Shown here: piece by piece, positions 7,671 through 55,977 of the stretch
Position numbering within the stretch: the first letter of the stretch is position 1
How the letters are laid out: each line of letters starts with the position of its first letter
Source of the DNA: Dillenia suffruticosa
Lineage: Eukaryota; Streptophyta; Magnoliopsida; Dilleniales; Dilleniaceae
DNA length: 64,000 nucleotides
Assembly: GCA_033439265.1 (NCBI GenBank)
Contig: JAVTVX010000026.1
Coordinates: 1,229,501-1,293,500, forward strand
Direction of reading: 5' to 3'
Notes under the pieces: model-generated
What the model was told of the DNA's origin: nothing
The model's input: the letters and a program-made list of their open reading frames with translations, nothing else
Database searches by the model: none
Program-made: the position numbers and the translations under genes

Positions 7671-7711
<41 letters not shown>

Positions 7712-19198: not shown

Positions 19199-19716
19199 CG
19201 CTTGGTTTGGCCCATGTAATTATATCTAGCAAAGGAATGCAACATCCTGCTGTATCAAAGGGTTTTTTTTTACTAATGAAAAGTATTACCCTTGTTCTCT
19301 TCATATCTGCTTTCCTCTTACCTCTTCCTCCATTCCTAGCAAATCCAGCAAAATGGGGGAGAGAGAGGGAGAGAGAGAGAGAACTTTATGCAAATATTTT
19401 ATTGCAGTGATAACTCCCATCTAAAGCCATCCCCAGCTACCAATTTGATAGATGCACTGCAGTGAAAATGAAATCACTTTATGGTACAGAAATCATTAGA
19501 AGATTAATTTATACTGGCAAAAAACCAATGCCAGAAACGAACAGAATACATATGAATAATTTCTGAGTGCTGATACAAAGGCAGGCCTAACAATTACTCA
19601 CATCTGAAACCAGCGTAGCCATACAGAAACAAGGTGAATCCTCGGAAAAGCCCTCAAGCAGCTGTTGAGGCACATGCAAGATTTCACAAGGGTGTGAAGC
19701 CTTTTAAATATCATTC
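19199..19716. other. Shared 3' region of two convergent genes
   Basis: The GEM-like stop (19198) and the F-box/LRR stop (19717) are 518 bp apart. The interval holds a GA-repeat (about 19357-19383). On the minus strand CAATAAAA (19397-19404) could be a polyadenylation signal for the F-box gene. The two 3' UTRs may overlap. Confidence 0.5.
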
Positions 19717-22234: not shown

Positions 22235-22777
22235 CGCTATTGCCACCGAGGATGAGGATGATGATGATGATGAGAGAGCGAGAGAGAGATATAGGGTGCG
22301 TGTGTGTGTGTGTATAAAATTCCAATTCTACTATGAACAGCGCAGTTGGGTAGGTTCCAATTGGGGTAGTCTGATTTTCTAAATTCGGATTCGGATTCGG
22401 AAAAAAAAAATAAAAAAAGAAATTATTACCCCCAACAAAACCCAACCCAACCCAACCCAACCAGTGATGGAGGTGGTTTGGGAAATTTCATCGGTCAGGT
22501 GCAGATTTTTTTCATCCACCGTCGACCCACGTAGTGCCGGATCGGAACCAAAAATATTTCGGGTTAAGTGGGCTCCGGCAAATTCGGGTTGCTTGATTAA
22601 CCTAAAAAAAAAAAAAGAATTTTAATATTATGTATTTTTTTATCGATATTCAGATTTTATCTGACTAATCTATTCTAAATATTATGATACTACTAAGAGA
22701 TTAATTTTTTCAAATTTTATTTTTTTCATTTTTATAACTCAAATTTAAGATATATCCTATATATAGTTCAACGGAAG
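22235..22777. other. Promoter side of the F-box/LRR gene
   Basis: This holds a GAT repeat (22254-22270), a GT run ending in GTGTATAAAAT (about 22298-22320), TCGGAT repeats (22385-22400) and four CCCAA units (22441-22460), then AT-rich DNA up to the LINE. On the gene's strand ATTTTATACACAC (22307-22319) could serve as a TATA region about 75 bp from the ATG. Confidence 0.4.
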
Positions 22778-33590: not shown

Positions 33591-33595
33591 AGGGC
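33591..33595. repeat. Target-site duplication of the copia array, left
   Basis: AGGGC directly precedes the LTR terminus TGTTGG. The same 5 bp follow the other LTR terminus at 55973-55977. Confidence 0.8.
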
Positions 33596-34088
33596 TGTTG
33601 GATTTAATCGCGCATGCGGAAGCGAGAATTAAATAGATCGGAATTTTCGGGATAAATACCTATATTGGGCGGTCTCCAAAATCCACCGTGTCGCGATGTC
33701 CCTTGAACGGATCGCACGGTCGGATGGTGATCACGAGGTTAGTCGAATCACCACCACAGCATCACAACGCCGCAATCCTCATGTCCGGTGAATCGTCTGA
33801 CGATGGGAGATTTTCCTACGCGAAAATCTCCATCCCTCTCTCTATTTTTCTCTCTCTAGAGAATATGTTTTTGTGAAACCCTAGCCTCCATCATGGTTGC
33901 CCATGGATGCTCTCCACACACAAGGTAGGAATAATTCTTTCTCAATTGAATCAAGAGAATAATCTCCATTAGGGTTAAGATTTGGGAGTTACCAAATAAT
34001 ATTGGTTAATATTGGTAAGTAATAATGGGAGTTACCCCATTATCTCATTCTTACCAAATTGCCCCACAATGGGCATAAATCACCTACA
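33596..34088 (-). repeat. LTR of the copia array (leftmost, full length 493 bp)
   Basis: Runs TGTTGGATTTAATCGCG ... AAATCACCTACA on the plus strand and is followed at once by TCTCCCACTTGC, the complement of a polypurine tract (GCAAGTGGGAGA). In element orientation this is the 3' LTR. It includes a CT-rich patch and a TAGAGAATATG stretch. Confidence 0.88.
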
Positions 34089-36011
34089 TCTCCCACTTGC
34101 ACATTAGGGCATTTCATTTCCGTCAATCACAAGATCGCAACTCATGCAATCTATCGCATCACCCTAATGGACTTTCATACTGGATTGGGCGTCGTGCGAC
34201 CGGCGAGTACACCTGCAAGCAAAGACTTCTCGATACACCTGTTAGGATGATCGAGTAGTCACTGTTAGTATAAAAATAACTCGCTATACCCCAGACTCAA
34301 TGCATTTACATCCATCGAGCCACTTTCCTCATCGAAAGTGATCCCCAATCAATTTGCTCGACTATGTATTCATTATTATGTTTGAATCCCAACATGGATT
34401 AACACAATAGGTCGACCTATGAATACATAACAATGATGTAATGACTATTGGCCTTCCTTTTCCCAAACTCGAATCTATCGGTCTCAATTCAGCTGCTTTC
34501 CTAGACCTGCCCCTTAGACCTCAATTTATCTTCCGGGCCATAGGTAAACAGACTAAAGTAGCAACACTGAACCAATACTTCTAGAGACAGCCGAAAGTAA
34601 TAAGGGCATAAGAGATCCCACCCAATGGATCTCAGGTCTCACACAGTGGGAACGGGGATCAATATCAAACTATCGTCTCAAATAATAGCTCCCACTATCC
34701 CATGGTCGTCTCATCACACGTGGTATGAAACACGTGCCACAGTGTTATTCCCCCATCTCTCAAAGGGCATATGTCAGATTTCTCTAACACCGTACAGGTA
34801 CGGGACTCAGTCTACACATAAGACTTTACCCAGAGATCTCAGAGAGAGCAACTCAGAGACAATATCACAAATCGCAGGTGATATCTGAGATCTCAAACCT
34901 GGCTACTTACAGGCAACATGGATGTGGGTATTTCCATGTCGGTCATATCGCATATGACCTCATCCTGAACACATATCAGGGCGACTTATGTTCTAGTAGG
35001 GCTACTCTCAAAGCCTCTTACAACTAGAATCCGTCTCATCTCCGCTCACTCAGAGTCGGAGGTGGTCACTCGTGTGAGAGAGTCAACCACGCCTGCCTGA
35101 CACATCTTTTATCACAAGATCACAATACATGACAACAAATAGTGCATGAATTAAATATGTGACCCAATAGTGCATGCATGTCATATATTAAAATAAGCAT
35201 CTAAAACAGTATATAAGGAGAAATGTTAAAGTACACTAAACCCAATGATTCCTTATCTCACAAAGGAATCTCTCACAACGGGTTTTCTGAAGAGATCAGC
35301 TCTCATGCTGAGGTGTACTTAGATGTCACAATACCCTTCTCGGTAATATCTCTCATAGTGGTCTTCGGTATTAATGTGTTTGGCTTTGCTATTACACTTA
35401 GGGTCTCTTTTGATGACAGTGTCGGTCTGATTATCACAATAATCATCACTGACCTCCCACTATCTGTCACAATCCCTAAGTCTTCCAAAAAATTTCTGAA
35501 GCCAACTATTCTCATGAACTGCAATTGAGCACACTACTAGCTCAATCTCTATCGTAAATAGAGATATACTGGTTCTCTTCTTACTACTCTAAGAAGATAA
35601 AACCTTTTGCGTTTATTCAGATCACTACTCCCAGTCAGTATCTGAATCTCAACCACAAAACGCAAATCACCTCATCCGTAACACATGGAGAGCTCTGCAG
35701 TTCAAATGAGATATTTCGGAATCCTTTTTCACTGCTCTACAGTGATCCCTTCCAGGATTCCATTAATACCTACTTACTAGATTAACCATAAAATAAATGT
35801 CTGGTCATGTATGCCTCATCGCATACATCAAATTGTATATCACACGTGTATACCTCATCGCATACACTAGAAATGTATTTTGCACTGGAATAAGGGATTC
35901 TACTCATCTCCCTTATTTCTTTATAAATTCTAGGGCATGTGTCAAGATTCAGGTCTTTTTATCTTTAGCGATTAGAGTATCTTTTAGGTTGTCATCGCTC
36001 TTCTCGAAATG

Positions 36012-36686
36012 CTTAAGAATCTACCTGATGTAAAACTCTTGTTAGAGAGTCAACACCATTCTCAAGCGATCCCTATGGATCCAAAATCTGAGAATGAACT
36101 AAAACCTCATAACCATGTTACAATGGTCATTAGATACTCTCTGTTGTTCCCAGCCAACAGTATGTCACCTACATATGAGAACATGCTCATAAAAGAGTCA
36201 TCGGGGCGTATCTGATAGATACAATGATCCTACTCGATCATTACTAAACCATAAGATATCACCTTCTCGTGAAATCCAAGCGCCGCTGTCTAGATGATGG
36301 CTTAAGGTCGTATTTTGATTTCTAAAATCAATAGACCTTATCCACCTGATCTACTAGAACGAACCCAAAGGGATGCTCCATGTAGATCGCCTCATCTAGA
36401 CTTCCACTACGAAAGCGGTCTTTACGTCCTTGTGATGTGACTCTTGATCTATGTTCGTGACAATCGCTGAAAGATAAACGGATCGAGATAAATTGGACTA
36501 TGACTCCTCGATAGTCCACCCCTCAGTCTAAGTGTAACCCTTGGTTACTAGACGGGTTCTTTATCTCTTCATCAATCCGTTGACCTTTATCTTGACTTTG
36601 AGAACCTACTTGTTCCCAATAGTCCTTCTGCCCTTAGGCAAATCAACTAGGTCCCAGACCCCGTTGATTCTTATCAATTCCTTCTC
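36012..36686 (+). repeat. Inverted duplication inside copia unit 1, left arm
   Basis: A 675-bp arm in the same orientation as units 3 and 4 (corresponding to about 52314-52988). Its reverse complement is at 37001-37675. I found one mismatch in the parts compared. Confidence 0.85.
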
Positions 36687-37000
36687 GAGAATGATTTCCC
36701 TAAGAGAGGTGAAATCAATTAGGACCTTACCCTTTATGCGATGGATTAGCCTAGTGGCTCGGGGAGCCCAGCGGCGGGATACAAGAATCCACTACGGATC
36801 TTGATCTCAGTGGGAGCGATCCATCAAGAGGTAAAGATTTTTCTCTCCTCCTAAGAGTGTCGAGAATGCGTATTTAAACGTTGTTTTCTCGATTGAGGGT
36901 GAGACCCTCATTGCGACTTTAGAGGATGATGAGAAATCTAAACGGTCCGAGAGGCTCTCGAGAGGATGTAAAATGCCGTTTAATGAAGGCCATAAATGAA

Positions 37001-37675
37001 GAGAAGGAATTGATGAGAATCAACGGGGTCTGGGACCTAGTTGATTTGCCTAAGGGCAGAAGGACTATTGGGAACAAGTAGGTTCTCAAAGTCAAGATAA
37101 AGGTCAACGGATTGATGAAGAGATAAAGAACCCGTCTAGTAACCAAGGGTTACACTTAGACTGAGGGGTGGACTATCGAGGAGTCATAGTCCAATTTATC
37201 TCGATCCGTTTATCTTTCAGCGATTGTCACGAACATAGATCAAGAGTCACATCACAAGGACGTAAAGACCGCTTTCGTAGTGGAAGTCTAGATGAGGCGA
37301 TCTACATGGAGCATCCCTTTGGGTTCGTTCTAGTAGATCAGGTGGATAAGGTCTATTGATTTTAGAAATCAAAATACGACCTTAAGCCATCATCTAGACA
37401 GCGGCGCTTGGATTTCACGAGAAGGTGATATCTTATGGTTTAGTAATGATCGAGTAGGATCATTGTATCTATCAGATACGCCCCGATGACTCTTTTATGA
37501 GCATGTTCTCATATGTAGGTGACATACTGTTGGCTGGGAACAACAGAGAGTATCTAATGACCATTGTAACATGGTTATGAGGTTTTAGTTCATTCTCAGA
37601 TTTTGGATCCATAGGGATCGCTTGAGAATGGTGTTGACTCTCTAACAAGAGTTTTACATCAGGTAGATTCTTAAG
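37001..37675 (-). repeat. Inverted duplication inside copia unit 1, right arm
   Basis: Reverse complement of 36012-36686 across a 314-bp spacer (36687-37000). The spacer is the family's next segment (matching about 52989-53300), also inverted. Normal orientation resumes after 37675. Confidence 0.85.
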
Positions 37676-39765
37676 TCTTCGATTATAGTGCCGTTCGTAT
37701 TCGCCTAGGAACACATATTTTCTCGCGGGTCTAACTCACCGTGTGAATGCGAGAAATCGTGGCACAACCCCATAACCTCAAGTGGCTAAGGTCAGGCTGC
37801 CTCCCTGTCCAAAGCTCAATGGGGAACTGACTACTAGTCAGTAGTCTCGTAATACTCTTATCGAAACAGAGTCTCATGTGTAGTTTAGACGAATACTTGC
37901 GTCCTCGCTCGGTTCTTGAAAGTCTGTACTTCTCAAATCTAACTGATTCTCAATCTCGCTTATGAACCTCCTGAAGCAGTCAAATGCCTCAGACTTGTGC
38001 GAGATCAGATAGATGAACCGAAACACACGTAAACATCTATAATTATCTACACAACTCCATTTCCGGCTCTCATGCTTATGAGACCACAATAAAAAGAAGG
38101 AAGGTACAATAGTTAACTGCAATGGAGTCCCAGCTCTCATTGCATCGCCAAATGGTTTTGTCGTCATTTTGCCGACTAGGCAAAACTCACATACGGGTAA
38201 CTCGAATCTGGTTAGCGGGTCCAAGAAACCTCTCGCTACTAACCGATTCATCATCTCTTACCCCATGTGTCTAAGTCTCATTTACATCATCATCTACGCA
38301 ATCAGATGTAAAGTCAATAGTAGAACTACAAAAAAAAAAACCATTACAAGGAGTTGTACCCAGTGCATACATTCCATCATGGATTAAAACCAGAATAATT
38401 TAGAAAATTATCGTATTAAAAACAAGGGAATGATTTCACACATATCGTAGTCAATTTTAGACAAGGTACTAAATTGTAGATCCGTCGAATGCCTACAACA
38501 TTGAGGACGTCATAGCAAGTGTCGTTCCCTCTGACAACGACAAATGATCTGTCCTTAACGTAAATCCTCCAAGTTTAAGGATTCACCTGACGGAACTATA
38601 TTTACGCACTCCTGTCTCGAGTTACGTGGTCGGTTGCTCCTGATTTCAAAGGAGAGAAATCAGCGAGTATTATAGTGAATGAGACAAATCTCACACCACG
38701 TAAAGAAGAAGAATATTGATTTCTGCTCGTCACACTCACGAGCGAAATGACCAAATCTACCTCAAACGTAGCAATTTACTTTGGTCTAATCTAATTCCTT
38801 CTTCTTGCGTTCTTGTACCTCGTTGTCGGTTTTCTTGGATGATTTTTATTACCTAGATCTCGAGTCACGTTCGCTAGGCTTAGCGCCGGGGAAGTCCTTA
38901 CTTGACTCCTCTGAATAAGCATGACTCGAGTGTGGCCTACTCGCCTCTAGGTGCTCCTCATCGAGCTCACAATTTGTATTCACGTCAACGAAAGTACGAA
39001 TACTTTCGTCAAATGTGAAATAGGATTTCACGGTTTCCCATGAATCAGGTAAAAAAATGGATCACATCCAATACCCAAATTCCATCCGAAATTTACTCGT
39101 CCGTATATATTAACTCGGTGATCATACTCGCCATTTGCTTCATTGTATGATTAACCCTTTTCTTCTGCATCCTCACATAGGAGCCGAAGAGAGCAACACT
39201 ATGCTCTTTTGGGACGAGTCGAACCGACGTGTTCATAAAATATGACTCGAAAAACGAGACTAAGTCATCGTGTATGCCACTGTTAAGCGTTGCCCTAACT
39301 TGACAAATCTTTTGTCCCATACACGATAGATCTCTTTATCTCGTATATTCTGAGGCGCGGTACCCACCCTGGGGCCCATCATCTCTTGCCTCAGATTCCC
39401 GTTAGATTTTTGTCTCTCGAGAATAAACCGAATCTACTCATAAAATCGCGCAGATCATATCATTCAGTTTACTCTCCTTGCAAAAATTTACAAAAATTTA
39501 ATACGACAGTTCTCAACGCATTAAGAGAGATATTTGTGACTTGGAGATGCTTATTATCTCATTTTTGTACGCCCTACGAATCATCAAGACCAAAATGACT
39601 TGAATACGACCCCAAAGCGAGCGTATGAGTCAACGGACACCATACACCACAACTTGGAATCGCATCTTACCATTTGGATTGTGATTCGGCATACAAAAAC
39701 CCACAAAAAGTCACATTTATGGATGTAGGACCCCCAAAAATTGAAAAAATTCAATTTTAAGCGTT

Positions 39766-40330
39766 CTCACGCGCCGCACGGGGACCGTCACGCGCCGCCG
39801 CTCGCCGGCGGTGCGATCCACGCGCCGCCGCGCGCCTCCACGCGCCGGCGGTGAGCCTCCACGCGCTGCCACGCGCCTCCACGCGCTGGCAGCAGTCTGG
39901 CTCACGCGCCAGACGCGCGGCCCGGCTCAGACGCGCTGCCACGCGCCTGGCGCGGCTCGGCTCACGCGCGCCCAGTCGCGGGGCGCGGCTCACGCGCCTT
40001 CACGCGCTGAGCCGTGTTGAGCCGGTCAGACCGGGTCGGTCAACGGGTCAAGGTTGACCCGACTGACCCGGTCAACGGGTCAGGGGTTGACCCGACTGAC
40101 CCGGTCAACGGGTCAGGGGTTGACCCGACTGACCGGTCAACGGGTTCGAGTCCGACCCGGTCGGGTCGGTTGCGGGTCGGACCGGGTCAGGGTCCGACCC
40201 GATCCGCTGACCCCCCTGCCCGTTCACGCGCCTGTGTGGAGCGTGAAGTCCACGCGCCTAGCAGACGCGCCTTCTGGCGCGTGGGTGTCACGCGCCCGCG
40301 GGTTTGGGCCGGTTCTTCTTCGCCCGACGG
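39766..40330. repeat. GC-rich, repeat-packed leader of copia unit 1
   Basis: Two repeat styles adjoin between primer binding site and gag. About 39768-40013 is full of CACGCGCC/CACGCGCT units. From about 40020 to 40200 a 33-bp unit (GACCCGACTGACCCGGTCAA core) repeats about three times. The same zone occurs at 43182-43407, 48905-49440 and 55422-55885. It is very CpG-rich against an AT-rich background. The long open frames across it are by-products of composition. Confidence 0.85.
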
Positions 40331-40847
40331 GTCCTGCAACGGGTTTTTCGACCCGTTTTCTGGAAAACTCGATTCCGGCTGTTGTTTCTTGCATTTTTCG
40401 ACTGGGAAAAATTTGTGGGTATCCTCCAAACATCCTACACTCGATTTTAGGAGGATTCAAGCCCAAAAATGGTGGGATTCAACCACCCCAGTCGCGGCCC
40501 TCCGCGGCCATTCAGAAATCCCAGTTTCCGGCACCCAAATCACACAATAAAATATATAAAACCGTAGATCTAGATGCAAGGAACTCATTTCTATCATTTT
40601 CATGCATCGATCCGCCCTCTAAAGCCACAGATCTAAGGGTTTTATGTCCGTAGGGTCGCAAACTTCGACCGGACTTTTCATGGCCCAAACATGCTCCGAA
40701 AATTAAACAAAAAATATATTTGTGATCCCTGGGCCATGGGTATTCTTGCAGTGTTCTCGGATTCACGAAACTCATCCGTGATCCGGACCCCAAAATTTTA
40801 AAAACCCCAAAAATAATTCCGAAAATTATTAAATTAAATCCAACGAC

Positions 40848-40860
40848 CGCTCTGATACCA
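40848..40860 (-). other. Primer binding site of copia unit 1
   Basis: On the minus strand TGGTATCAGAGCG, complementary to the 3' end of plant initiator Met-tRNA, one base from the LTR terminus at 40862. This fixes the orientation of the family as minus. Confidence 0.85.
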
Positions 40861-43407
40861 ATGTTGGATTTAATCGCGCATGCGGAAGCGAGAATTAAAT
40901 AGATCGGAATTTTCGGGATAAATACCTATATTGGGCGGATCGCTCCCACTGAGATCAAGATCCGTAGTGGATTCTTGTATCCCGCCGCTGGGCTCCCCGA
41001 GCCACTAGGCTAATCCATCGCATAAAGGGTAAGGTCCTAATTGATTTCACCTCTCTTAGGGAAATCATTCTCAAGAAATATAGTATTACGAGACTCAGTC
41101 TCGATTATAGTGCCGTTCGTATTCGCCTAGGAACACATATTTTCTCGCGGGTCTAACTCACCGTGTGAATGCGAGAAATCGTGGCACAACCCCATAACCT
41201 CAAGTGGCTAAGGTCAGGCTGCCTCCCTGTCCAAAGCTCAATGGGGAACTGACTACTAGTCAGTAGTCTCGTAATACTCTTATCGAAACAGAGTCTCATG
41301 TGTAGTTTAGACGAATACTTGCGTCCTCGCTCGGTTCTTGAAAGTCTGTACTTCTCAAATCTAACTGATTCTCAATCTCGCTTATGAACCTCCTGAAGCA
41401 GTCAAATGCCTCAGACTTGTGCGAGATCAGATAGATGAACCGAAACACACGTAAACATCTATAATTATCTACACAACTCCATTTCCGGCTCTCATGCTTA
41501 TGAGACCACAATAAAAAGAAGGAAGGTACAATAGTTAACTGCAATGGAGTCCCAGCTCTCATTGCATCGCCAAATGGTTTTGTCGTCATTTTGCCGACTA
41601 GGCAAAACTCACATACGGGTAACTCGAATCTGGTTAGCGGGTCCAAGAAACCTCTCGCTACTAACCGATTCATCATCTCTTACCCCATGTGTCTAAGTCT
41701 CATTTACATCATCATCTACGCAATCAGATGTAAAGTCAATAGTAGAACTACAAAAAAAAAAAAACCATTACAAGGAGTTGTACCCAGTGCATACATTCCA
41801 TCATGGATTAAAACCAGAATAATTTAGAAAATTATCGTATTAAAAACAAGGGAATGATTTCACACATATCGTAGTCAATTTTAGACAAGGTACTAAATTG
41901 TAGATCCGTCGAATGCCTACAACATTGAGGACGTCATAGCAAGTGTCGTTCCCTCTGACAACGACAAATGATCTGTCCTTAACGTAAATCCTCCAAGTTT
42001 AAGGATTCACCTGACGGAACTATATTTACGCACTCCTGTCTCGAGTTACGTGGTCGGTTGCTCCTGATTTCAAAGGAGAGAAATCAGCGAGTATTATAGT
42101 GAATGAGACAAATCTCACACCACGTAAAGAAGAAGAATATTGATTTCTGCTCGTCACACTCACGAGCGAAATGACCAAATCTACCTCAAACGTAGCAATT
42201 TACTTTGGTCTAATCTAATTCCTTCTTCTTGCGTTCTTGTACCTCGTTGTCGGTTTTCTTGGATGATTTTTATTACCTAGATCTCGAGTCACGTTCGCTA
42301 GGCTTAGCGCCGGGGAAGTCCTTACTTGACTCCTCTGAATAAGCATGACTCGAGTGTGGCCTACTCGCCTCTAGGTGCTCCTCATCGAGCTCACAATTTG
42401 TATTCACGTCAACGAAAGTACGAATACTTTCGTCAAATGTGAAATAGGATTTCACGGTTTCCCATGAATCAGGTAAAAAAATGGATCACATCCAATACCC
42501 AAATTCCATCCGAAATTTACTCGTCCGTATATATTAACTCGGTGATCATACTCGCCATTTGCTTCATTGTATGATTAACCCTTTTCTTCTGCATCCTCAC
42601 ATAGGAGCCGAAGAGAGCAACACTATGCTCTTTTGGGACGAGTCGAACCGACGTGTTCATAAAATATGACTCGAAAAACGAGACTAAGTCATCGTGTATG
42701 CCACTGTTAAGCGTTGCCCTAACTTGACAAATCTTTTATACCATACACGATAGATCTCTTTATCTCGTATATTCTGAGGCGTGGTGCCCACCCTGAGGCC
42801 CATCATCTCGTGCCTCAGATTCCCGTTAGATTTTGCATCTCGAGAATAAACTGAATCTTCTGATAAAATCGCGTAGATCACATCATTCAGTTTGCTCTCC
42901 TTGCAAAAATTTAATACGACAGTTCTCAACGCATTAAGAGAGACATATGTGACTTGGAGATGCTTATTATCACATTTTTGTACGCCCTACGAATCATGAA
43001 GACCAAAATGACTTGAGTACGACCCCAAAGCGAGCGTATGAGTCAACGGACACCATACACCACAACTTGGAATCGCATCTTACCATTTGGACTGTGATTC
43101 GGCACACAAAAACCCACAAAAAATCACATTTATGGATGTAGGACCCCCAAAAAATTGAAAAAATTCAATTTTTAGCGACTTCACGCGCCGCCCGGGGGCC
43201 CACACGCGCCGCCGCTCGCCGGCGGTGCGATCCACGCGCCGCCGCGCGCCTCCACGCGCCGGCGGTGAGCCTCCACGCGCTGCCACGCGCCTCCACGCGC
43301 TGGCAGCAGTCTGGCTCACTCGCCAGACGCGCGGCGCGGCTCATACGCGCTGCCACGCGCCAGGGCCGGCTCGGCTCACGCGCGCCCAGTCGCGGCGCGC
43401 GGCTCAC

Positions 43408-43884
43408 TGGATTTAATCGCGCATGCGGAAGCGTGAATTAAATAGATCGGAATTTTCGGGATAAATACCTCTATTGGGCGGTCTCCAAAATCTACCGTGT
43501 CGCGATGTCCCTCGAACGGATCGCACGGTCGGATGGTGATCACGCAATCGAACCACCACCTCAAATCCACGACGCCTCAAGCCTCGTGTCCGGTGAATCG
43601 TCTGACGATGGGAGATTTTCCTACGCGAAAATCTCCATCCCTCTCTCTATTCTCTCTCTAGAGAATATGTGAAACCCTAGCCTCCATAGTAGCCTCCCAT
43701 GGCTTCTCTCAACACACAAGGTAGGAATCATACTTTCTCAATTGAATCAAGAGAATAATCTCCATTAGGGTTAAGATTTGGGAGTTACCAAATAATATTA
43801 GTTAATATTGGTAAGTAATAATGGGAGTTACCCCATTATCTCATTCTTACCAAATTGCCCCACAATGGGCATAAATAACCTACA
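43408..43884 (-). repeat. Internal LTR of the copia array (diverged copy)
   Basis: Shares the whole LTR layout from TGGATTTAATCGCG to AATAACCTACA and is followed by the same polypurine-tract complement. More different from the outer LTR than the 49901 copy is. Confidence 0.85.
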
Positions 43885-46800
43885 TCTCCCACTTGCACAT
43901 TAGGGCATTTCATTTTCGTCAATCACAAGATCGCAACTCATGCGATTTATCACATCACCCTACTGGACCTTCATACTGGATTGGGCGTCGTGCGACCGGC
44001 GAGTACACCTGCAAGCAAAGACTTCTCGATACACCTGTTAGGATGATCGAGAAGTCACTGTTAGTATAAAAATAACTCGCTATACCCCAGACTCAATGTA
44101 TTTACATCCATCGAGCCACTTTCCTCATCGAAAGTGATCCCCAATCAATTTGCTCGACTATGTATTCATTATTATGTTTGAATCCCAACATGGATTAACA
44201 CAATAGGTCAACCTATGAATACATTACAATGATGTAATGACTATTGGCCTTCCTTTTCCCAAACTCGAATCTATCGGTCTCAATTCAGCTGCTTTCCTAG
44301 ACCTGCCCCTTAGACCTCAATTTATCTTCCGGGCCATAGGTAAACAGACTAAAGTAGCAACACTGAACCAATACTTCTAGAGACAGCCGAAAGTAATAAG
44401 GGCATAAGAGATCCCACCCAATGGATCTCAGGTCTCACACAGTGGGAACCGGGGATCATGATCATACTATCGTCTCAAATAATAGCTCCCACTATCCCAT
44501 GGTCATCTCATCACACGTGGTATGAAACACGTGCCACAGTGTTATTCCCCCATCTCTCAAAGGGCATATGTCAGATTTCTCTAACACTGTACAGGTACGG
44601 GACTCAGTCTACACATAAGACTTTACCCAGAGATCTCAGAGAGAGCAACTCAGAGACAATATCACAAATCGCAGGTGATATCTGAGATCTCATACCTGGC
44701 TGCTTACAGGCAACATGGATGTGGGTATTTCCATGTCGGTCATATCGCATATGACCTCATCCTGAACACATATCAGGGCGACTTATGTTCTAGTAGGGCT
44801 ACTCTCAAAGCCTCTTACGACTAGAATCCGTCTCATCTCCGCTCACTCAGAGTCGGAGGTGGTCACTCGTGTGAGAGAATCGACCATGCCTGCCTGACAC
44901 ATCTTTTAATCACAAGATCACAATATATGACAACAAATAGTGCATGAATTAAATATGTGACCCAATAGTGCATGCATGTCATATATTAAAATAAGCATCT
45001 AAAACAGTATATAAGGAGAAATGTTAAAGTACACTAAACCCAATGATTCCTTATCTCACAAAGGAATCTCTCACAACGGGTTTTCTGAAGAGATCAGCTC
45101 TCATGCTGAGGTGTACTTAGATGTCACAATACCCTTCTCGGTAATATCTCTCATAGTGGTCTTCGGTATTAATGTGTTTGGCTTTACTATTACACTTAGG
45201 GTCTCTTTTGATGACAGTGTCGGTCTGATTATCACAATAATCATCACTGACCTCCCACTATCTGTCACAATCCCTAAGTCTTCCAAAAAATTTCTGAAGC
45301 CAACTATTCTCATAAACTGCAATTGAGCACACTACAAGCTCAGTCTCTATAGTAAATAGAGATATACAGGTTCTCTTCTTACTGCTCTAAGAAGATAAAA
45401 CCTTTTGCGTTTATTCAGATCACTACTCCCAATCAGTATCTGAATCTCAACCACAAAACGCAAATCACCTCATCCGTAACACATGGAGAGATCCGCAGTT
45501 CAAATGAGATATTTCAGAATCCTTTTTCACTGCTCTACAGTGATCCCTTCTAGGATTCTATTAATACCTACTCACCAGATCGACCATTAAATAAACGTCT
45601 GGTTATGTATGCCTCATCGCATACATCAAATTGTATATCACACGTGTATACCTCATCGCATACACTAGAAATGTATTTTGCACTGGAATAAGGGATTCTG
45701 CTCATCTCCCTTATTTCTTTATAAATTCTAGGGCATGTGTCAAGATTCAAGTCTTTTTATCTTTAACGATTAGAGTATCTTTTAGGTTGTCATCGCTCTT
45801 CTCGAAATGCTTAAGAATCTACCTGATGTAAAACTCTTGTTAAAGAGTCAACACCATTCTCAAGCGATCCCTATGGATCCAAAATCTGAGAATGAACTAA
45901 AACCTCATAACGATGTTACAATGGTCATTAGATACTCTCTGTTGTTCCCAGCCAACAGTATGTCACCTACATATGCGAACATGCTCATAAAGGAGTTATC
46001 GGGACGTATCAGATATATGCAATGATCCTACTCGATCATTACAAAACCATAAGATATCACCTTCTCGTGAAATCTCAAGCGCCGCTGTCTAGATGATGGC
46101 TTAAGGTCATATGTTGATTTCGAAAATCAATAGACCTTATACATCTGATCTACTAGAACGAACCCAGAGGGATGCTCCATGTAGATCGCCTCATCTTTAC
46201 TTCCAATACGAAAGCGGTATTTACATCCTTGTAATATGACTCCTAATCCATGTTCGTGACAATCGCTGAAAGATAAACGGATCGAGATAAATTGGACTAT
46301 GACTCCTCGATAGTCCACCCCACAGTCTAAGTGTAACCCTTGGTTACTAGACGGGTCCTTTACCTCTTCATCAATCCGTTAACCTTTATCTTGACTTTGA
46401 GAACCTACTTGTTCCCAATAGTTCTTCCGCCCTTAGGCAAATCAACTAGGTCCCAGACCCCGTTGATTCTCATCAATTCCTTCTCTTCATTTATGACCTT
46501 CAATAAACGGTATTTTGCATCTTTTGCAGAACTCTCGAGAGCCTCTCGGACCGTTTTAGATTTCTCATCTTTTGCAACGAGGGTCTCACCCTCAATCGAG
46601 AAACAACGTTTAAATACGCATTCTCGATACTCTTAGGAGGAGAGAAAAATCTTTACCTCTTGATGGATCGCTCCCACTGAGATCAAGATCCGTAGTGGAT
46701 TCTTGTATCCCGCCGTTGGGCTCCCCGAGCCACTAAGCTCATCCATCGCATAAAGGGTAGGGTCCAAATTGATTTCACCTCTCTTAGGGAAATCATTCTC

Positions 46801-49800
46801 AAGAAATATAGTATTACGAGACTCAATCTCGATTATAGTGCCGTTCGTGTTCGCGTAGGAACACATATTTTCTCGCGGGTCTAACTAACCGTGTGAATGC
46901 GAGAAATCGTGGCACAACCCCATAACCTCAAGTGGCTAAGGTCAGGCTGCCTCCCTGTCCTAAGCTCAATGGGGAACTGACTACTAGTCAGTAGTCTCGT
47001 AATACTCTTATCGAAACAGAGTCCCATGTGTAGTTTAGACGAATACTTGCGTTCTCGCTCGGTTCTAAGAGTCTTATTGACTCTCAATCTCGCTTATGAA
47101 CCTCCTGAAGCAGTTTAATGCCTCAGACTGATGCGAGATCAGATTGATGAACCGAAACGCACGTAAGCGTCTATAAGCATCATTTTTTACACAACTCCAT
47201 TTCCGGCTCTCATGCTCATGAGACCACAATAAAAAGAAGGAAAACACAATAGTTAACTGCAATGGAGTCCCAGCTCTCATTGCATCGCCAAATGGTTTTC
47301 TCGTCATTTTGCCGACTAGGCAAAACTCACATACGGGTAACTCGAATCTGGTTAGCGGGTCCAAGAAACCTCTCGCTACTAACCGATTCATCATCTCTTA
47401 CCCCATGTGTCTAAGTCTACTATGTCATTCATTTACATCATCATCTACGCAATCAGATGTAAAGTCAATAGTAGAACTACTAAAAACCATTAGAAAGAGT
47501 AATACCCAATGCATACATTTCATCATGGATTAAAACCAGAATAATTCAGAAAATTGTCGTATTAAAAACAATGGAATAATTTCACGCATATCGTAGTCAA
47601 TTTTAGACAAGGTACAAATTTGTAGATCCGTCAAATACCTACAATATTGAGGACGTCATAGCAAGTGTCGTTCCCTCTGACAACGACGAATGCTCTGTCC
47701 TTAACGTAAATCCTCCAAACTTAAGGATTCACTTGACGGATTACGCACTCCTATCTCGAGTTACGTGGTCGGTTGCTCCTGATTCCAAAGAAGAGAAATC
47801 AGCGAGTATTATAGTGAATGAGAAAAATCTCACACCACGTAAAGAAGAAGAATATTTATTTCTGCTAGTCACACTCACGAGCGAAATGACCAAATCTACC
47901 TCAAACGTAGCAATTTCTTTGGTATAAACAAATTCCTTCTTCTTGCGTTCTTGTACCTCGTTGTCGGTTTTGTCGGATGATTTTTATTACCTAGATCTCG
48001 AGTCTCGTTCGCTAGGCTTAGTGCCGGGGAAGTCCTTACTTGACTCCTCTGAATAAGCATGACTCGAGTGTGGCCTACTCGCCTCTAGGTGCTCCTCATC
48101 GAGATCACAATATGTACTCACGTCAACGAAAGTACGAATACTTTCGTCAAATGTGAGATAGTATTTCACGGTTTCCCATGAATCAGGTAAAAAACTGGAT
48201 CACATCCAGTACCTAAATTTCATCCGAAATTTACTCGTCCGTATATATTAACTCGGTGATCATACTCGCCATTTGCTTCATTGTATGATTAACCCTTTTC
48301 TTCTGCATCCTCACATAGGAGCCGAAGAGAGCAACACTATGCTCTTATGGGACGAGTCGAACCGACGTGTTCATAAAATATGACTCGAAAAACGAGACTA
48401 AGTCATCGTGTATGCCACTGTTAAGCGTTGCCCTAACTTGACAAATCTTTTGTCCCATACACGATAGATCTCTTTATCTCGTATATTCTGAGGCGCGGTA
48501 CCCACCCTGGGGCCCATCATCTCTTGCCTCAGATTCCCGTTAGATTTTTGTCTCTCGAGAATAAACCGAATCTACTCATAAAATCGCGCAGATCATATCA
48601 TTCAGTTTACTCTCCTTGCAAAAATTTAAAAAAAATTTAATACGACAGTTCTCAACGCATTAAGAGAGATATTTGTGACTTGGAGATGCTTATTATCTCA
48701 TTTTTGTACGCCCTACGAATCATCAAGACCAAAATGACTTGAATACGACCCCAAAGCGAGCGTATGAGTCAACGGACACCATACACCACAACTTGGAATC
48801 GCATCTTACCATTTGGATTGTGATTCGGCATACAAAAACCCACAAAAAGTCACATTTATGGATGTAGGACCCCCAAAAATTGAAAAAATTCAATTTTAAG
48901 CGTTCTCACGCGCCGCACGGGGACCGTCACGCGCCGCCGCTCGCCGGCGGTGCGATCCACGCGCCGCCGCGCGCCTCCACGCGCCGGCGGTGAGCCTCCA
49001 CGCGCTGCCACGCGCCTCCACGCGCTGGCAGCAGTCTGGCTCACGCGCCAGACGCGCGGCCCGGCTCAGACGCGCTGCCACGCGCCTGGCCCGGCTCGGC
49101 TCACGCGCGCCCAGTCGCGGGGCGCGGCTCACGCGCCTTCACGCGCTGAGCCGTGTTGAGCCGGTCAGACCGGGTCGGTCAACGGGTCAAGGTTGACCCG
49201 ACTGACCCGGTCAACGGGTCAGGGGTTGACCCGACTGACCGGTCAACGGGTTCGAGTCCGACCCGGTCGGGTCGGTTTGCGGGTCGGACCGGGTCAGGGT
49301 CCGACCCGATCCGCTGACCCTGCCCGTTCACGCGCCTGTGTGGCGCGTGAAGTCCACGCGCCTAGCAGACGCGCCTCCTGGCGCGTGCGTGTCACGTGCC
49401 CGCGGGTCTGGGCCGGTTCTTCTTCGCCCGACGGGTCCTGTAACGGGTTTTTAGACCCGTTTTCTGGAAAACACCAATCCGGCTGTTTTTTCTTGCATTT
49501 TTCGACTGGGAAATATTTGTAGGTATCCTCCAAACATCCTACACTCGATTTTAGGAGGATTCAATCCCAAAAATTCTGGAAATCAACCACCCCAGTCGCG
49601 GCCCTCCGCGGCCATTCGGAAATCCCAGTTTCCGGCACCCAAAACTCACAATAAAAGACATAAAACAATAGATCTAGATGCAAGGAACACATTTATAATT
49701 TTTTCATGTATCGATCCGCCCTCTAAAGCTACAGATCTAAGGGTTTTATGTCCGTAGGGTCGCAAACTTCGACCGGACATTTCATGGCCCAAACATGCTC

Positions 49801-49900
49801 CGAAAATTAAACAAAAAATATATTTGTAATCCTTGGGCCATGGGTATTCCTACGGTGTTCTCGGATTCACGAAACTCATCCGTGATCCGGACCCCAAAAT

Positions 49901-50388
49901 TTTAATCGCGCATGCGGAAGCGTGAATTAAATAGATCGGAATTTTCGGGATAAATACCTATATTGGGCGGTCTCCAAAATCCACCGTGTCGCGATGTCCC
50001 TTGAACGGATCGCACGGTCGGATGGTGATCACGAGGTTAGTCGAATCACCACCACAGCATCACAACGCCGCAATCCTCATGTCCGGTGAATCGTCTGACG
50101 ATGGGAGATTTTCCTACGCGAAAATCTCCATCCCTCTCTCTATTTTTCTCTCTCTAGAGAATATGTTTTTTTGTGAAACCCTAGCCTCCATCATGGTTGC
50201 CCATGGATGCTCTCCACACACAAGGTAGGAATAATTCTTTCTCAATTGAATCAAGAGAATAATCTCCATTAGGGTTAAGATTTGGGAGTTACCAAATAAT
50301 ATTGGTTAATATTGGTAAGTAATAATGGGAGTTACCCCATTATCTCATTCTTACCAAATTGCCCCACAATGGGCATAAATCACCTACA
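49901..50388 (-). repeat. Internal LTR of the copia array (near-identical copy)
   Basis: Matches 33607-34088 with only a handful of differences and is followed by TCTCCCACTTGC at 50389. Near identity to the leftmost LTR points to recent duplication or conversion. Confidence 0.87.
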
Positions 50389-53300
50389 TCTCCCACTTGC
50401 ACATTAGGGCATTTCATTTCCGTCAATCACAAGATCGCAACTCATGCAATCTATCGCATCACCCTACTGGACTTTCATACTGGATTGGGCGTCGTGCGAC
50501 CGGCGAGTGCACCTGCAAGCAAAGACTTCTCGATACACCTGTTAGGATGATCGAGTAGTCACTGTTAGTATAAAAATAACTCGCTATACCCCAGACTCAA
50601 TGCATTTACATCCATCGAGCCACTTTCCTCATCGAAAGTGATCCCCAATCAATTTGCTCGACTATGTATTCATTATTATGTTTGAATCCCAACATGGATT
50701 AACACAATAGGTCGACCTATGAATACATAACAATGATGTAATGACTATTGGCCTTCCTTTTCCCAAACTCGAATCTATCGGTCTCAATTCAGCTGCTTTC
50801 CTAGACCTGCCCCTTAGACCTCAATTTATCTTCCGGGCCATAGGTAAACAGACTAAAGTAGCAACACTGAACCAATACTTCTAGAGACAGCCGAAAGTAA
50901 TAAGGGCATAAGAGATCCCACCCAATGGATCTCAGGTCTCACACAGTGGGAACGGGGATCAATATCAAACTATCGTCTCAAATAATAGCTCCCACTATCC
51001 CATGGTCGTCTCATCACACGTGGTATGAAACACGTGCCACAGTGTTATTCCCCCATCTCTCAAAGGGCATATGTCAGATTTCTCTAACACCGTACAGGTA
51101 CGGGACTCAGTCTACACATAAGACTTTACCCAGAGATCTCAGAGAGAGCAACTCAGAGACAATATCACAAATCGCAGGTGATATCTGAGATCTCAAACCT
51201 GGCTACTTACAGGCAACATGGATGTGGGTATTTCCATGTCGGTCATATCGCATATGACCTCATCCTGAACACATATCAGGGCGACTTATGTTCTAGTAGG
51301 GCTACTCTCAAAGCCTCTTACAACTAGAATCCGTCTCATCTCCGCTCACTCAGAGTCGGAGGTGGTCACTCGTGTGAGAGAGTCAACCACGCCTGCCTGA
51401 CACATCTTTTATCACAAGATCACAATACATGACAACAAATAGTGCATGAATTAAATATGTGACCCAATAGTGCATGCATGTCATATATTAAAATAAGCAT
51501 CTAAAACAGTATATAAGGAGAAATGTTAAAGTACACTAAACCCAATGATTCCTTATCTCACAAAGGAATCTCTCACAACGGGTTTTCTGAAGAGATCAGC
51601 TCTCATGCTGAGGTGTACTTAGATGTCACAATACCCTTCTCGGTAATATCTCTCATAGTGGTCTTCGGTATTAATGTGTTTGGCTTTGCTATTACACTTA
51701 GGGTCTCTTTTGATGACAGTGTCGGTCTGATTATCACAATAATCATCACTGACCTCCCACTATCTGTCACAATCCCTAAGTCTTCCAAAAAATTTCTGAA
51801 GCCAACTATTCTCATGAACTGCAATTGAGCACACTACTAGCTCAATCTCTATCGTAAATAGAGATATACTGGTTCTCTTCTTACTACTCTAAGAAGATAA
51901 AACCTTTTGCGTTTATTCAGATCACTACTCCCAGTCAGTATCTGAATCTCAACCACAAAACGCAAATCACCTCATCCGTAACACATGGAGAGCTCTGCAG
52001 TTCAAATGAGATATTTCGGAATCCTTTTTCACTGCTCTACAGTGATCCCTTCCAGGATTCCATTAATACCTACTTACTAGATTAACCATAAAATAAATGT
52101 CTGGTCATGTATGCCTCATCGCATACATCAAATTGTATATCACACGTGTATACCTCATCGCATACACTAGAAATGTATTTTGCACTGGAATAAGGGATTC
52201 TACTCATCTCCCTTATTTCTTTATAAATTCTAGGGCATGTGTCAAGATTCAGGTCTTTTTATCTTTAGCGATTAGAGTATCTTTTAGGTTGTCATCGCTC
52301 TTCTCGAAATGCTTAAGAATCTACCTGATGTAAAACTCTTGTTAGAGAGTCAACACCATTCTCAAGCGATCCCTATGGATCCAAAATCTGAGAATGAACT
52401 AAAACCTCATAACCATGTTACAATGGTCATTAGATACTCTCTGTTGTTCCCAGCCAACAGTATGTCACCTACATATGAGAACATGCTCATAAAAGAGTCA
52501 TCGGGGCGTATCTGATAGATACAATGATCCTACTCGATCATTACTAAACCATAAGATATCACCTTCTCGTGAAATCCAAGCGCCGCTGTCTAGATGATGG
52601 CTTAAGGTCGTATTTTGATTTCTAAAATCAATAGACCTTATCCACCTGATCTACTAGAACGAACCCAAAGGGATGCTCCATGTAGATCGCCTCATCTAGA
52701 CTTCCACTACGAAAGCGGTCTTTACGTCCTTGTGATGTGACTCTTGATCTATGTTCGTGACAATCGCTGAAAGATAAACGGATCGAGATAAATTGGACTA
52801 TGACTCCTCGATAGTCCACCCCTCAGTCTAAGTGTAACCCTTGGTTACTAGACGGGTTCTTTATCTCTTCATCAATCCGTTGACCTTTATCTTGACTTTG
52901 AGAACCTACTTGTTCCCAATAGTCCTTCTGCCCTTAGGCAAATCAACTAGGTCCCAGACCCCGTTGATTCTCATCAATTCCTTCTCTTCATTTATGGCCT
53001 TCATTAAACGGCATTTTACATCCTCTCGAGAGCCTCTCGGACCGTTTAGATTTCTCATCATCCTCTAAAGTCGCAATGAGGGTCTCACCCTCAATCGAGA
53101 AAACAACGTTTAAATACGCATTCTCGACACTCTTAGGAGGAGAGAAAAATCTTTACCTCTTGATGGATCGCTCCCACTGAGATCAAGATCCGTAGTGGAT
53201 TCTTGTATCCCGCCGCTGGGCTCCCCGAGCCACTAGGCTAATCCATCGCATAAAGGGTAAGGTCCTAATTGATTTCACCTCTCTTAGGGAAATCATTCTC

Positions 53301-55665
53301 AAGAAATATAGTATTACGAGACTCAGTCTCGATTATAGTGCCGTTCGTATTCGCCTAGGAACACATATTTTCTCGCGGGTCTAACTCACCGTGTGAATGC
53401 GAGAAATCGTGGCACAACCCCATAACCTCAAGTGGCTAAGGTCAGGCTGCCTCCCTGTCCAAAGCTCAATGGGGAACTGACTACTAGTCAGTAGTCTCGT
53501 AATACTCTTATCGAAACAGAGTCTCATGTGTAGTTTAGACGAATACTTGCGTCCTCGCTCGGTTCTTGAAAGTCTGTACTTCTCAAATCTAACTGATTCT
53601 CAATCTCGCTTATGAACCTCCTGAAGCAGTCAAATGCCTCAGACTTGTGCGAGATCAGATAGATGAACCGAAACACACGTAAACATCTATAATTATCTAC
53701 ACAACTCCATTTCCGGCTCTCATGCTTATGAGACCACAATAAAAAGAAGGAAGGTACAATAGTTAACTGCAATGGAGTCCCAGCTCTCATTGCATCGCCA
53801 AATGGTTTTGTCGTCATTTTGCCGACTAGGCAAAACTCACATACGGGTAACTCGAATCTGGTTAGCGGGTCCAAGAAACCTCTCGCTACTAACCGATTCA
53901 TCATCTCTTACCCCATGTGTCTAAGTCTCATTTACATCATCATCTACGCAATCAGATGTAAAGTCAATAGTAGAACTACAAAAAAAAAAAAACCATTACA
54001 AGGAGTTGTACCCAGTGCATACATTCCATCATGGATTAAAACCAGAATAATTTAGAAAATTATCGTATTAAAAACAAGGGAATGATTTCACACATATCGT
54101 AGTCAATTTTAGACAAGGTACTAAATTGTAGATCCGTCGAATGCCTACAACATTGAGGACGTCATAGCAAGTGTCGTTCCCTCTGACAACGACAAATGAT
54201 CTGTCCTTAACGTAAATCCTCCAAGTTTAAGGATTCACCTGACGGAACTATATTTACGCACTCCTGTCTCGAGTTACGTGGTCGGTTGCTCCTGATTTCA
54301 AAGGAGAGAAATCAGCGAGTATTATAGTGAATGAGACAAATCTCACACCACGTAAAGAAGAAGAATATTGATTTCTGCTCGTCACACTCACGAGCGAAAT
54401 GACCAAATCTACCTCAAACGTAGCAATTTACTTTGGTCTAATCTAATTCCTTCTTCTTGCGTTCTTGTACCTCGTTGTCGGTTTTCTCGGATGATTTTTA
54501 TTACCTAGATCTCGAGTCACGTTCGCTAGGCTTAGCGCCGGGGAAGTCCTTACTTGACTCCTCTGAATAAACATGACTCGAGTGTGGCCTACTCGCCTCT
54601 AGGTGCTCCTCATCGAGCTCACAATTTGTATTCACGTCAACGAAAGTACGAATACTTTCGTCAAATGTGAAATAGGATTTCACGGTTTCCCATGAATCAG
54701 GTAAAAAAATGGATCACATCCAATACCCAAATTCCATCCGAAATTTACTCGTCCGTATATATTAACTCGGTGATCATACTCGCCATTTGCTTCATTGTAT
54801 GATTAACCCTTTTCTTCTGCATCCTCACATAGGAGCCGAAGAGAGCAACACTATGCTCTTTTGGGACGAGTCGAACCGACGTGTTCATAAAATATGACTC
54901 GAAAAACGAGACTAAGTCATCGTGTATGCCACTGTTAAGCGTTGCCCTAACTTGACAAATCTTTTGTCCCATACACGATAGATCTCTTTATCTCGTATAT
55001 TCTGAGGCGCGGTACCCACCCTGGGGCCCATCATCTCTTGCCTCAGATTCCCGTTAGATTTTTGTCTCTCGAGAATAAACCGAATCTACTCATAAAATCG
55101 CGCAGATCATATCATTCAGTTTACTCTCCTTGCAAAAATTTACAAAAATTTAATACGATAGTTCTCAACGCATTAAGAGAGATATTTGTGACTTGGAGAT
55201 GCTTATTATCTCATTTTTGTACGCCCTACGAATCATCAAGACCAAAATGACTTGAATACGACCCCAAAGCGAGCGTATGAGTCAACGGACACCATACACC
55301 ACAACTTGGAATCGCATCTTACCATTTGGATTGTGATTCGGCATACAAAAACCCACAAAAAGTCACATTTATGGATGTAGGACCCCCAAAAATTGAAAAA
55401 ATTCAATTTTAAGCGTTCTCACGCGCCGCACGGGGACCGTCACGCGCCGCCGCTCGCCGGCGGTGCGATCCACGCGCCGCCGCGCGCCTCCACGCGCCGG
55501 CGGTGAGCCTCCACGCGCTGCCACGCGCCTCCACGCGCTGGCAGCAGTCTGGCTCACGCGCCAGACGCGCGGCCCGGCTCAGACGCGCTGCCACGCGCCT
55601 GGCCCGGCTCGGCTCACGCGCGCCCAGTCGCGGGGCGCGGCTCACGCGCCTTCACGCGCTGAGCC

Positions 55666-55885
55666 GTGTTGAGCCGGTCAGACCGGGTCGGTCAACGGGT
55701 CAAGGTTGACCCGACTGACCCGGTCAACGGGTCAGGGGTTGACCCGACTGACCCGGTCAACGGGTCAGGGGTTGACCCGACTGACCGGTCAACGGGTTCG
55801 AGTCCGACCCGGTCGGGTCGGTTGCGGGTCGGACCGGGTCAGGGTCCGACCCGATCCGCTGACCCCCCTGCCCGTTCACGCGCCT
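55666..55885. repeat. 33-bp W-box repeats in copia unit 4 leader
   Basis: Same three-copy 33-bp repeat as unit 1, each unit with TTGACC and its inverse GGTCAA. Unit 3 (49193-49260) has fewer copies. Confidence 0.85.
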
Positions 55886-55895
55886 GGCGTCTGGC

Positions 55896-55916
55896 CCCTA
55901 AACCCTAAACCCTAAA
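55896..55916. repeat. Interstitial telomere-type repeat (CCCTAAA)3
   Basis: Three exact copies of CCCTAAA, the Arabidopsis-type plant telomere repeat, between the unit 4 leader and the terminal LTR remnant. The 55886-55895 bases next to it match neither side. Other copies of the family lack the repeat at this place. Confidence 0.88.
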
Positions 55917-55972
55917 AACCCCATTATCTCATTCTTACCAAATTGCCCCACAATGGGCATAAATCACCTACA

Positions 55973-55977
55973 AGGGC
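55973..55977. repeat. Target-site duplication of the copia array, right
   Basis: AGGGC immediately after the LTR terminus CCTACA, matching 33591-33595. Confidence 0.8.

What the first reader, a model, noticed from the sequence alone, without database searches (positions are those of the whole stretch)
33591..55977. A 22.4-kb copia array bounded by one 5-bp target duplication
AGGGC sits directly outside the first LTR (33591-33595) and directly outside the last LTR remnant (55973-55977), while the internal junctions are LTR-to-internal joins without their own target duplications. The simplest reading is one copia insertion that grew into a head-to-tail multi-unit array by unequal exchange or replication-based duplication, followed by rearrangement. 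Copia arrays of LTR-internal-LTR-internal form are known but seldom this large on one site. Near identity of units 1 and 4 says the growth is recent.
Basis: partly seen in the sequence, partly recalled or inferred. Interest (0 to 1): 0.75.

Follow-up and report, generated by a model that had tools for sequence, protein, structure and literature searches.

The report
Patchwork copia retrotransposon multimer, one insertion
A plant jumping gene sits here as a 22-kb chain of four damaged copies bounded by one insertion scar; the chain is a patchwork of at least two related versions of the element, which suggests that free copies recombined with each other or with the inserted one.

Summary
AGGGC flanks the block exactly at the TG...CA ends, no internal LTR boundary has a target duplication of its own, and units 1 and 4 differ by 8 substitutions in 5637 aligned bases. 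The element is copia, on the minus strand.

Growth by unequal exchange alone does not fit. Unit 3 is a relative (type B, 3.5-4.7% substitutions) up to point X (48347-48452) and type A after it; unit 2 is type A up to the same point (42633-42738), then 5.1% different. Of 79 unit-3-private sites 78 lie left of X; 40 of 40 unit-2-private sites lie right of it. The simplest reading is one circularly permuted B unit set into A sequence by a single crossover of a one-LTR circle. Copy choice between two co-packaged RNAs predicts the same coincidence and is the main rival; chance alone is about 3%. All four units are damaged: an inverted duplication in U1, truncated joints, and a 31-bp filler with three telomere-type repeats at the right end.

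Multi-unit LTR elements with one target duplication are known (Triticeae, rice, maize, pear), as are Ty1 cDNA multimers. This is a chimeric member. No genome or reads were held, so misassembly is not excluded.

The parts
33591..33595 (.). left target site duplication AGGGC
33596..34088 (-). LTR1, 493 bp, complete, TG...CA (3' LTR in element sense)
34089..34099 (-). polypurine tract (complement TCTCCCACTTG) beside LTR1; same context after 43884 and 50388
33596..40861 (-). Unit 1 (type A at least to about 40234), LTR1 to PBS, interrupted by the inverted block
36687..37675 (+). inverted block in unit 1: identical to the reverse complement of U4 52312-53300; gives a 675-bp inverted duplication (36012-36686 against 37001-37675) and flips about 314 bp; joints with 0 and 2 bp of strict microhomology (read by eye)
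40849..40860 (-). primer binding site (TGGTATCAGAGC in element sense), the only exact copy found in the array; inside a hairpin with 12-bp arms
40862..40938 (-). 77 bp of an LTR (U5 end), identical to LTR1, then joint Jc (2-bp overlap) to deep internal sequence
40937..43407 (-). Unit 2 internal piece: type A up to X (42633-42738), then private sequence (read as type B) to 43407
43408..43884 (-). Unit 3 LTR (type B), lacking the outer 3 bp; joint Jd to a unit 2 leader that lacks its last 868 bp, PBS included
43408..49905 (-). Unit 3: type B from LTR to X (48347-48452), type A after X; leader from about 49344 differs from U1 again (38 of 567)
49901..50388 (-). Unit 4 LTR (type A, one U3-like site at its start), lacking the outer 7 bp; joint Je with 5-bp microhomology TTTAA to a unit 3 leader that lacks its last 60 bp, PBS included
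49901..55886 (-). Unit 4 (type A), near-identical to U1; leader lacks its last 627 bp, PBS included
55887..55917 (.). filler of about 31 bp holding CCCTAAA x3; no 10-, 11- or 12-base match elsewhere in the window
55918..55972 (-). right LTR remnant, identical to the last 55 bp of LTR1 and of U4's LTR (start of the 5' LTR in element sense)
55973..55977 (.). right target site duplication AGGGC

Best explanation
The block is a heterogeneous copia multimer at one integration site. Integrase inserted type-A element DNA and made the AGGGC duplication (shown by TSD and ends). A related type-B copy, present outside the chromosome as a one-LTR circle or an equivalent head-to-tail cDNA, recombined by a single homologous crossover at X with an A unit. 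This left one circularly permuted B unit between U2's A head and U3's A tail (the mosaic is shown; the circle and the single B source are inferred). Further A units came from the same kind of event or from in-place duplication (inferred). Leader ends lacking 868 or 60 bp joined to LTR ends lacking 3 or 7 bp (Jd, Je), the inverted block, Jc and the filler look like end-joining or template-switch repair, either when circles closed or later (joints shown, timing inferred). Whether the multimer was complete before integration or grew afterwards is unresolved. No unit has a long pol reading frame, so the element would have needed proteins supplied in trans (inferred).
For: A single TSD at true LTR ends. 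Complementary switches in U2 and U3 at the same 104-bp interval: 78 of 79 unit-3-private sites left of it, 40 of 40 unit-2-private sites right of it, Fisher p 5e-31 (sites are linked, so p is only a guide); BLAST profiles made without MAFFT show the same change-over. The stretch X(U2)-Jd-LTR-X(U3) is one unit long: spacing 5714 against 5710 expected from the U3-U4 spacing with the bases missing at Je and Jd taken into account. It has one LTR, as a one-LTR circle would give; an ordinary two-LTR insertion has no contiguous leader-LTR-PPT order (established element anatomy). The LTRs of U3 and U4 are cut only 3 and 7 bp from the outer end, as trimmed cDNA ends would be. In yeast, HR promotes Ty1 cDNA multimers and multimeric integration is reported (PMC7524711, PMC4378997, passages seen).
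Against: The match of the two switch points has a chance of about 3% if U3's switch were uniform over the unit (210 of 6498 bp, my arithmetic), and it was noticed after the fact. A/B identity stretches of 175-260 bp occur elsewhere, so X is located only roughly. That U2's tail and U3's head are one source is inferred; U2's tail could be a third source. U1 and U3 differ again by 38 of 567 bases in the leader, where U4 is missing, which needs at least one further switch that the circle model does not predict. The cuts at LTR +3 and +7 also lie in one arm of a hairpin around the PBS, so later hairpin-driven deletion explains them too. No circle, read or relative was seen.
Confidence: 0.42

Rival explanations
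1. Reverse-transcription copy choice: A and B RNAs shared a particle. Minus-strand cDNA copied A to X, switched to B for B's 5' part, skipped the PBS into U5, transferred to B's 3' end, copied to X where B's RNA had already been degraded, and was forced back to A. The long cDNA was then integrated once.
For: It predicts two switches at the same X with each RNA copied once, and fits the joints into U5 and the single TSD. Dimers with one 5-bp TSD, explained by template switching, are reported from Triticeae, rice and maize (PMC1950507, whole text read).
Against: Two RNAs give two units, not four; the three A-type parts, which differ by about 0.1%, need more A templates or later duplication. The reported cases have complete cores and an internal LTR, while here three of four units lack the PBS.
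Confidence: 0.27
2. In-place growth only: one A insertion duplicated by unequal exchange or replication-based repair, with later conversion by dispersed relatives making U2 and U3 look foreign.
For: U1 and U2 share states at 33625 and 38836 that U3 and U4 lack, as sister duplicates would. The inverted block and filler look like replication-based or end-joining repair.
Against: Conversion from an ordinary B insertion cannot supply leader-LTR-3' half in one stretch. Two separate conversions would need to end at the same X by chance. The joints are not homologous LTR crossovers.
Confidence: 0.13
3. Recombination elsewhere, then transposition: a complex formed by unequal recombination between elements at another place was transcribed and inserted here as a whole.
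For: This is the presumed origin of 252 multi-LTR Cassandra elements in pear, and 4 of 5 further complex TRIM elements there have TSDs (PMC4668562, passages seen).
Against: Those are TRIMs, which are short (recalled); a 22-kb transcript with internal LTRs and broken joints is a harder substrate (inference).
Confidence: 0.05
4. Assembly artefact: near-identical copies were joined or ordered wrongly.
For: No reads or second assembly could be checked. X lies in about 104 bp of A/B identity, where a short-read graph could switch.
Against: Copies 99.86% alike over 5.6 kb are kept apart, which suggests long reads; no N bases; the outer TSD is exact.
Confidence: 0.1
5. Nested separate insertions.
For: Several LTR pieces in one block.
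Against: No internal LTR boundary touches host DNA or carries its own target duplication; the units lie in one orientation except the inverted block.
Confidence: 0.03

Closest known systems
Template-switching complex LTR retrotransposons (Sabot and Schulman 2007, PMC1950507, whole text read)
   Same: Tandem units, one 5-bp TSD around the whole, two of the cases copia (Angela), model allows slightly different family members as parents
   Different: Those have three LTRs, two complete cores and alike outer LTRs; here four damaged units, complementary switches at one point, an inverted block, and a right LTR of only 55 bp
Ty1 cDNA multimers of yeast (PMC4378997 and PMC7524711, passages seen; Bryk 2001 seen only as a reference)
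   Same: Copia-type element, heterogeneous multimers, homologous recombination of cDNA, multimeric integration
   Different: Experimental yeast strains; here a natural plant locus with mosaic units and truncated joints
Cassandra tandem arrays and multi-LTR TRIM complexes (PMC7215508, abstract, discussion and passages; PMC4668562, passages)
   Same: Alternating LTR and internal units in plants, three or more LTRs, some with TSDs; growth discussed as recombination or template switching
   Different: Those are TRIMs, Cassandra with 5S sequence and almost identical units; here a pol-derived copia element, no Rfam match in the window at gathering score, and one unit 3.5-4.7% different over most of its length

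Membership tests
Copia (Ty1/copia) LTR retrotransposon | TG...CA LTRs and 5-bp target duplication | tested here: met
Copia (Ty1/copia) LTR retrotransposon | PBS next to the 5' LTR and PPT next to the 3' LTR | tested here: met
   that the PBS fits initiator tRNA-Met is recalled
Copia (Ty1/copia) LTR retrotransposon | integrase before reverse transcriptase, RVT_2 type | tested here: met
   weakly: 4 of 10 open pieces of U4 hit gag_pre-integrs, SH3_retrovirus and RVT_2 (twice) in that order, E 0.0019 to 0.12, all under the curated cut-offs
Copia (Ty1/copia) LTR retrotransposon | intact polyprotein (autonomy; not needed for membership) | tested here: not met
   longest open piece over pol is 127 aa; the longer array ORFs (137-210 aa) lie in or beside the leader
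Template-switching complex (Sabot and Schulman) | one TSD around all units | tested here: met
Template-switching complex (Sabot and Schulman) | outermost LTRs highly alike | tested here: inconclusive
   55 of 55 bp identical, but only 55 bp of the right LTR remain
Template-switching complex (Sabot and Schulman) | two complete cores and an internal LTR | tested here: not met
   PBS only in U1; internal LTRs lack 3 bp, 7 bp or all but 77 bp
Ty1-type cDNA multimer | heterogeneous head-to-tail units at one insertion site | tested here: met
Ty1-type cDNA multimer | dependence on Rad52-type recombination | not testable with these tools
   needs genetics
Cassandra tandem array | 5S-bearing TRIM element without pol | tested here: not met
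   no Rfam match at gathering score in the window; weak pol-type hits

The most novel reading that the evidence does not exclude
The locus preserves, base by base, the footprint of a retrotransposon circle recombining into an integrated copy in a plant: a circularly permuted B unit bounded on both sides by the same crossover point, with its circle-closing joint (Jd) still readable. Plant retrotransposon circles would then be able to build arrays at existing insertion sites without integrase.
Probability: 0.3. Interest if true: 0.6.

Novelty: new member of a known kind. Interest (0 to 1): 0.35.

Why it matters
Tandem retrotransposon arrays are usually put down to unequal exchange or template switching. 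This locus holds at least two related sequence types, so the joins can be read. If the permuted unit is real, it links extrachromosomal retrotransposon DNA to array growth in a plant; among the papers seen here, cDNA recombination into multimers was described for yeast Ty1.

Tried and rejected
Rejected: nested insertions (no internal TSD); plain head-to-tail duplication of one element (unit 3 and the unit 2 tail differ). Led nowhere: own-genome search (no genome held); one exact LTR-end pattern each in viral contigs and genome contigs (0 matches; by their descriptions these collections do not hold plants, so this says little); the source of the filler; Rfam (0 matches at gathering score). Weak Pfam hits SDH_C, DUF6845 and HMW1C_N were set aside as chance.

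One search found no paper. I looked into six held papers: PMC1950507 whole; PMC7215508 abstract, discussion and passages; PMC4378997, PMC7524711 and PMC4668562 passages; PMC12273906 by word search only, which gave nothing on this point. Two others asked for were not held. The remaining papers were seen as listings only, among them a fungal eccDNA study that holds the term 1-LTR circle (PMC9694575). I make no claim that a circle-integration footprint is absent from print.

Counting notes: indel runs count as one site. Its run count was 4, not 2, because of one unit-3-private one-base indel inside a gapped stretch (39489); the run probability it printed is therefore not used. The middle piece of U3 (46486-46828) was outside the site lists.

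Considered and not settled: whether U1 or U3 is the non-A one in the leader (U1 40235-40801); whether U4's LTR start (T at the place of 33625, shared with U3) is B type or ancestral; whether U2's tail is B or a third source.

Full report
OBSERVATION. The block starts at TGTTGG (33596) and ends at CCTACA (55972), with AGGGC directly outside each end. Self-comparison (hits of 60 bp or more, E 1e-10) shows units related in direct order, one inverted block, and no match of the block to the rest of the 64-kb window. The element reads on the minus strand: PBS complement at 40849-40860, PPT complement after the LTR ends at 34088, 43884 and 50388. Ten of the 90 open pieces listed for U4 were scanned; four hit gag_pre-integrs, SH3_retrovirus and RVT_2 (twice) in copia order, below the curated cut-offs. 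The longest open piece over pol is 127 aa, and five of the six A/B indels between U1 37679 and 39300 are not multiples of three. The element was therefore probably non-autonomous before the array formed (inference).

ANATOMY. U1: LTR1 to PBS, with the stretch equivalent to U4 52987 to about 53322 replaced by an inverted copy of 52312-53300, which makes a 675-bp inverted duplication. U1/U2: a normal PBS-LTR joint, then 77 bp of LTR identical to LTR1, then a jump into internal sequence with a 2-bp overlap. U2/U3: a leader lacking its last 868 bp joined to an LTR lacking its outer 3 bp. U3/U4: a leader lacking its last 60 bp joined to an LTR lacking its outer 7 bp, with TTTAA at both sides. U4/right end: a leader lacking its last 627 bp, filler of about 31 bp with three CCCTAAA repeats, then the last 55 bp of an LTR. 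In the last three cases the PBS is lost. The PBS of U1 lies in a hairpin with 12-bp arms (DNA fold z -2.93, 4 of 200 shuffles fold as well); the LTR cuts at U2/U3 and U3/U4 fall in one arm.

MOSAIC. U1 and U4 differ by 8 of 5637 aligned bases; U1 and U2 by 0 of 1582 left of X and 37 of 722 right of it; U1 and U3 by 107 of 3068 (LTR to 36686), 73 of 1553 (37679 to X), 2 of 938 (X to 40234) and 38 of 567 (40235-40801). In the part held by all four units (U1 37679-39993), 119 sites set U2 or U3 apart where U1 and U4 agree, and one more has three states. Of 79 unit-3-private sites 78 lie left of the interval 39209-39314; the exception is a one-base indel inside a gapped stretch. Of 40 unit-2-private sites all lie right of it. 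From LTR to 36686 the longest stretch without a U1/U3 substitution is 260 bp. Reading left to right the array is A in U2 to X, foreign from X through Jd and the U3 LTR to X in U3, then A again. If the foreign part is one source, it is a single permuted unit.

MECHANISM. A circle with one LTR, recombining once with an A unit at X, gives this order by necessity. Forced copy choice between two RNAs in one particle also gives it. A chance match of two independent switches is about 3% (my arithmetic), so the inference is moderate, and it was made after the fact. In-place duplication may still explain the A-type parts: U1 and U2 share two states that U3 and U4 lack (33625, 38836). A further switch is needed in the leader, where U1 and U3 part again and U4 is missing.

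KNOWN KINDS. Sabot and Schulman describe complexes of two units with one TSD from Triticeae, rice and maize and propose template switching; their Table 1 counts 20 recombinant complexes and 2 template-switching complexes in about 7 Mb of Triticeae sequence (PMC1950507, whole text). A pear study counts 252 Cassandra complexes with 3 to 5 LTRs and 5 more of another TRIM, 4 of these with TSDs (PMC4668562 passages). Cassandra arrays reach 12 almost identical units (PMC7215508 abstract and discussion). In yeast, HR promotes Ty1 cDNA multimers and multimeric integration is reported (PMC7524711 passages); [quoted passage not shown] The present array works like these; it departs from the Triticeae complexes in having incomplete cores and LTRs.

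LIMITS. No genome, reads or relatives were available (exact patterns in two collections gave 0 matches). The species is unknown; that it is a plant rests on gene families in the flanks (GRAM, LRR of plant F-box type, DUF829; 7 of 10 scanned flank ORFs had a hit, two of these below the curated cut-off) and on recalled knowledge. Age was not computed; 0.14% between A units indicates a recent common origin of those parts, not the date of insertion.

Divergences were recounted, the PBS was placed at 40849-40860, 'short of the PBS' became 'lacking the last n bp before the LTR', the inverted block's single mismatch proved to lie at the joint, and the pear paper was added together with a fifth rival; the odds of the copy-choice, in-place and assembly rivals were lowered slightly to make room for it.

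Noticed in passing
55887-55917: Filler at the right end holds three plant-telomere-type repeats (CCCTAAA), the only run of two or more in the window; perhaps telomeric DNA captured during break repair.
   Followed up: partly
40815-40885: The PBS lies inside a hairpin with 12-bp arms formed by the LTR end and the leader.
   Followed up: partly
40037-40145, 49176-49251, 55689-55797: A 32-33-bp minisatellite in the element leader with 3.4, 2.4 and 3.4 copies in U1, U3 and U4.
   Followed up: no
18689-22327: GRAM-domain ORF on + and LRR ORF on -, with a weak F-box hit (below its cut-off) further right; ordinary plant-type genes.
   Followed up: no
24590-24982: ORF with a good RVT_3 (RNase H-like) hit, E 1.6e-18.
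   Followed up: no
7693-7854: 81-bp unit repeated twice at 92% next to a CT run.
   Followed up: no
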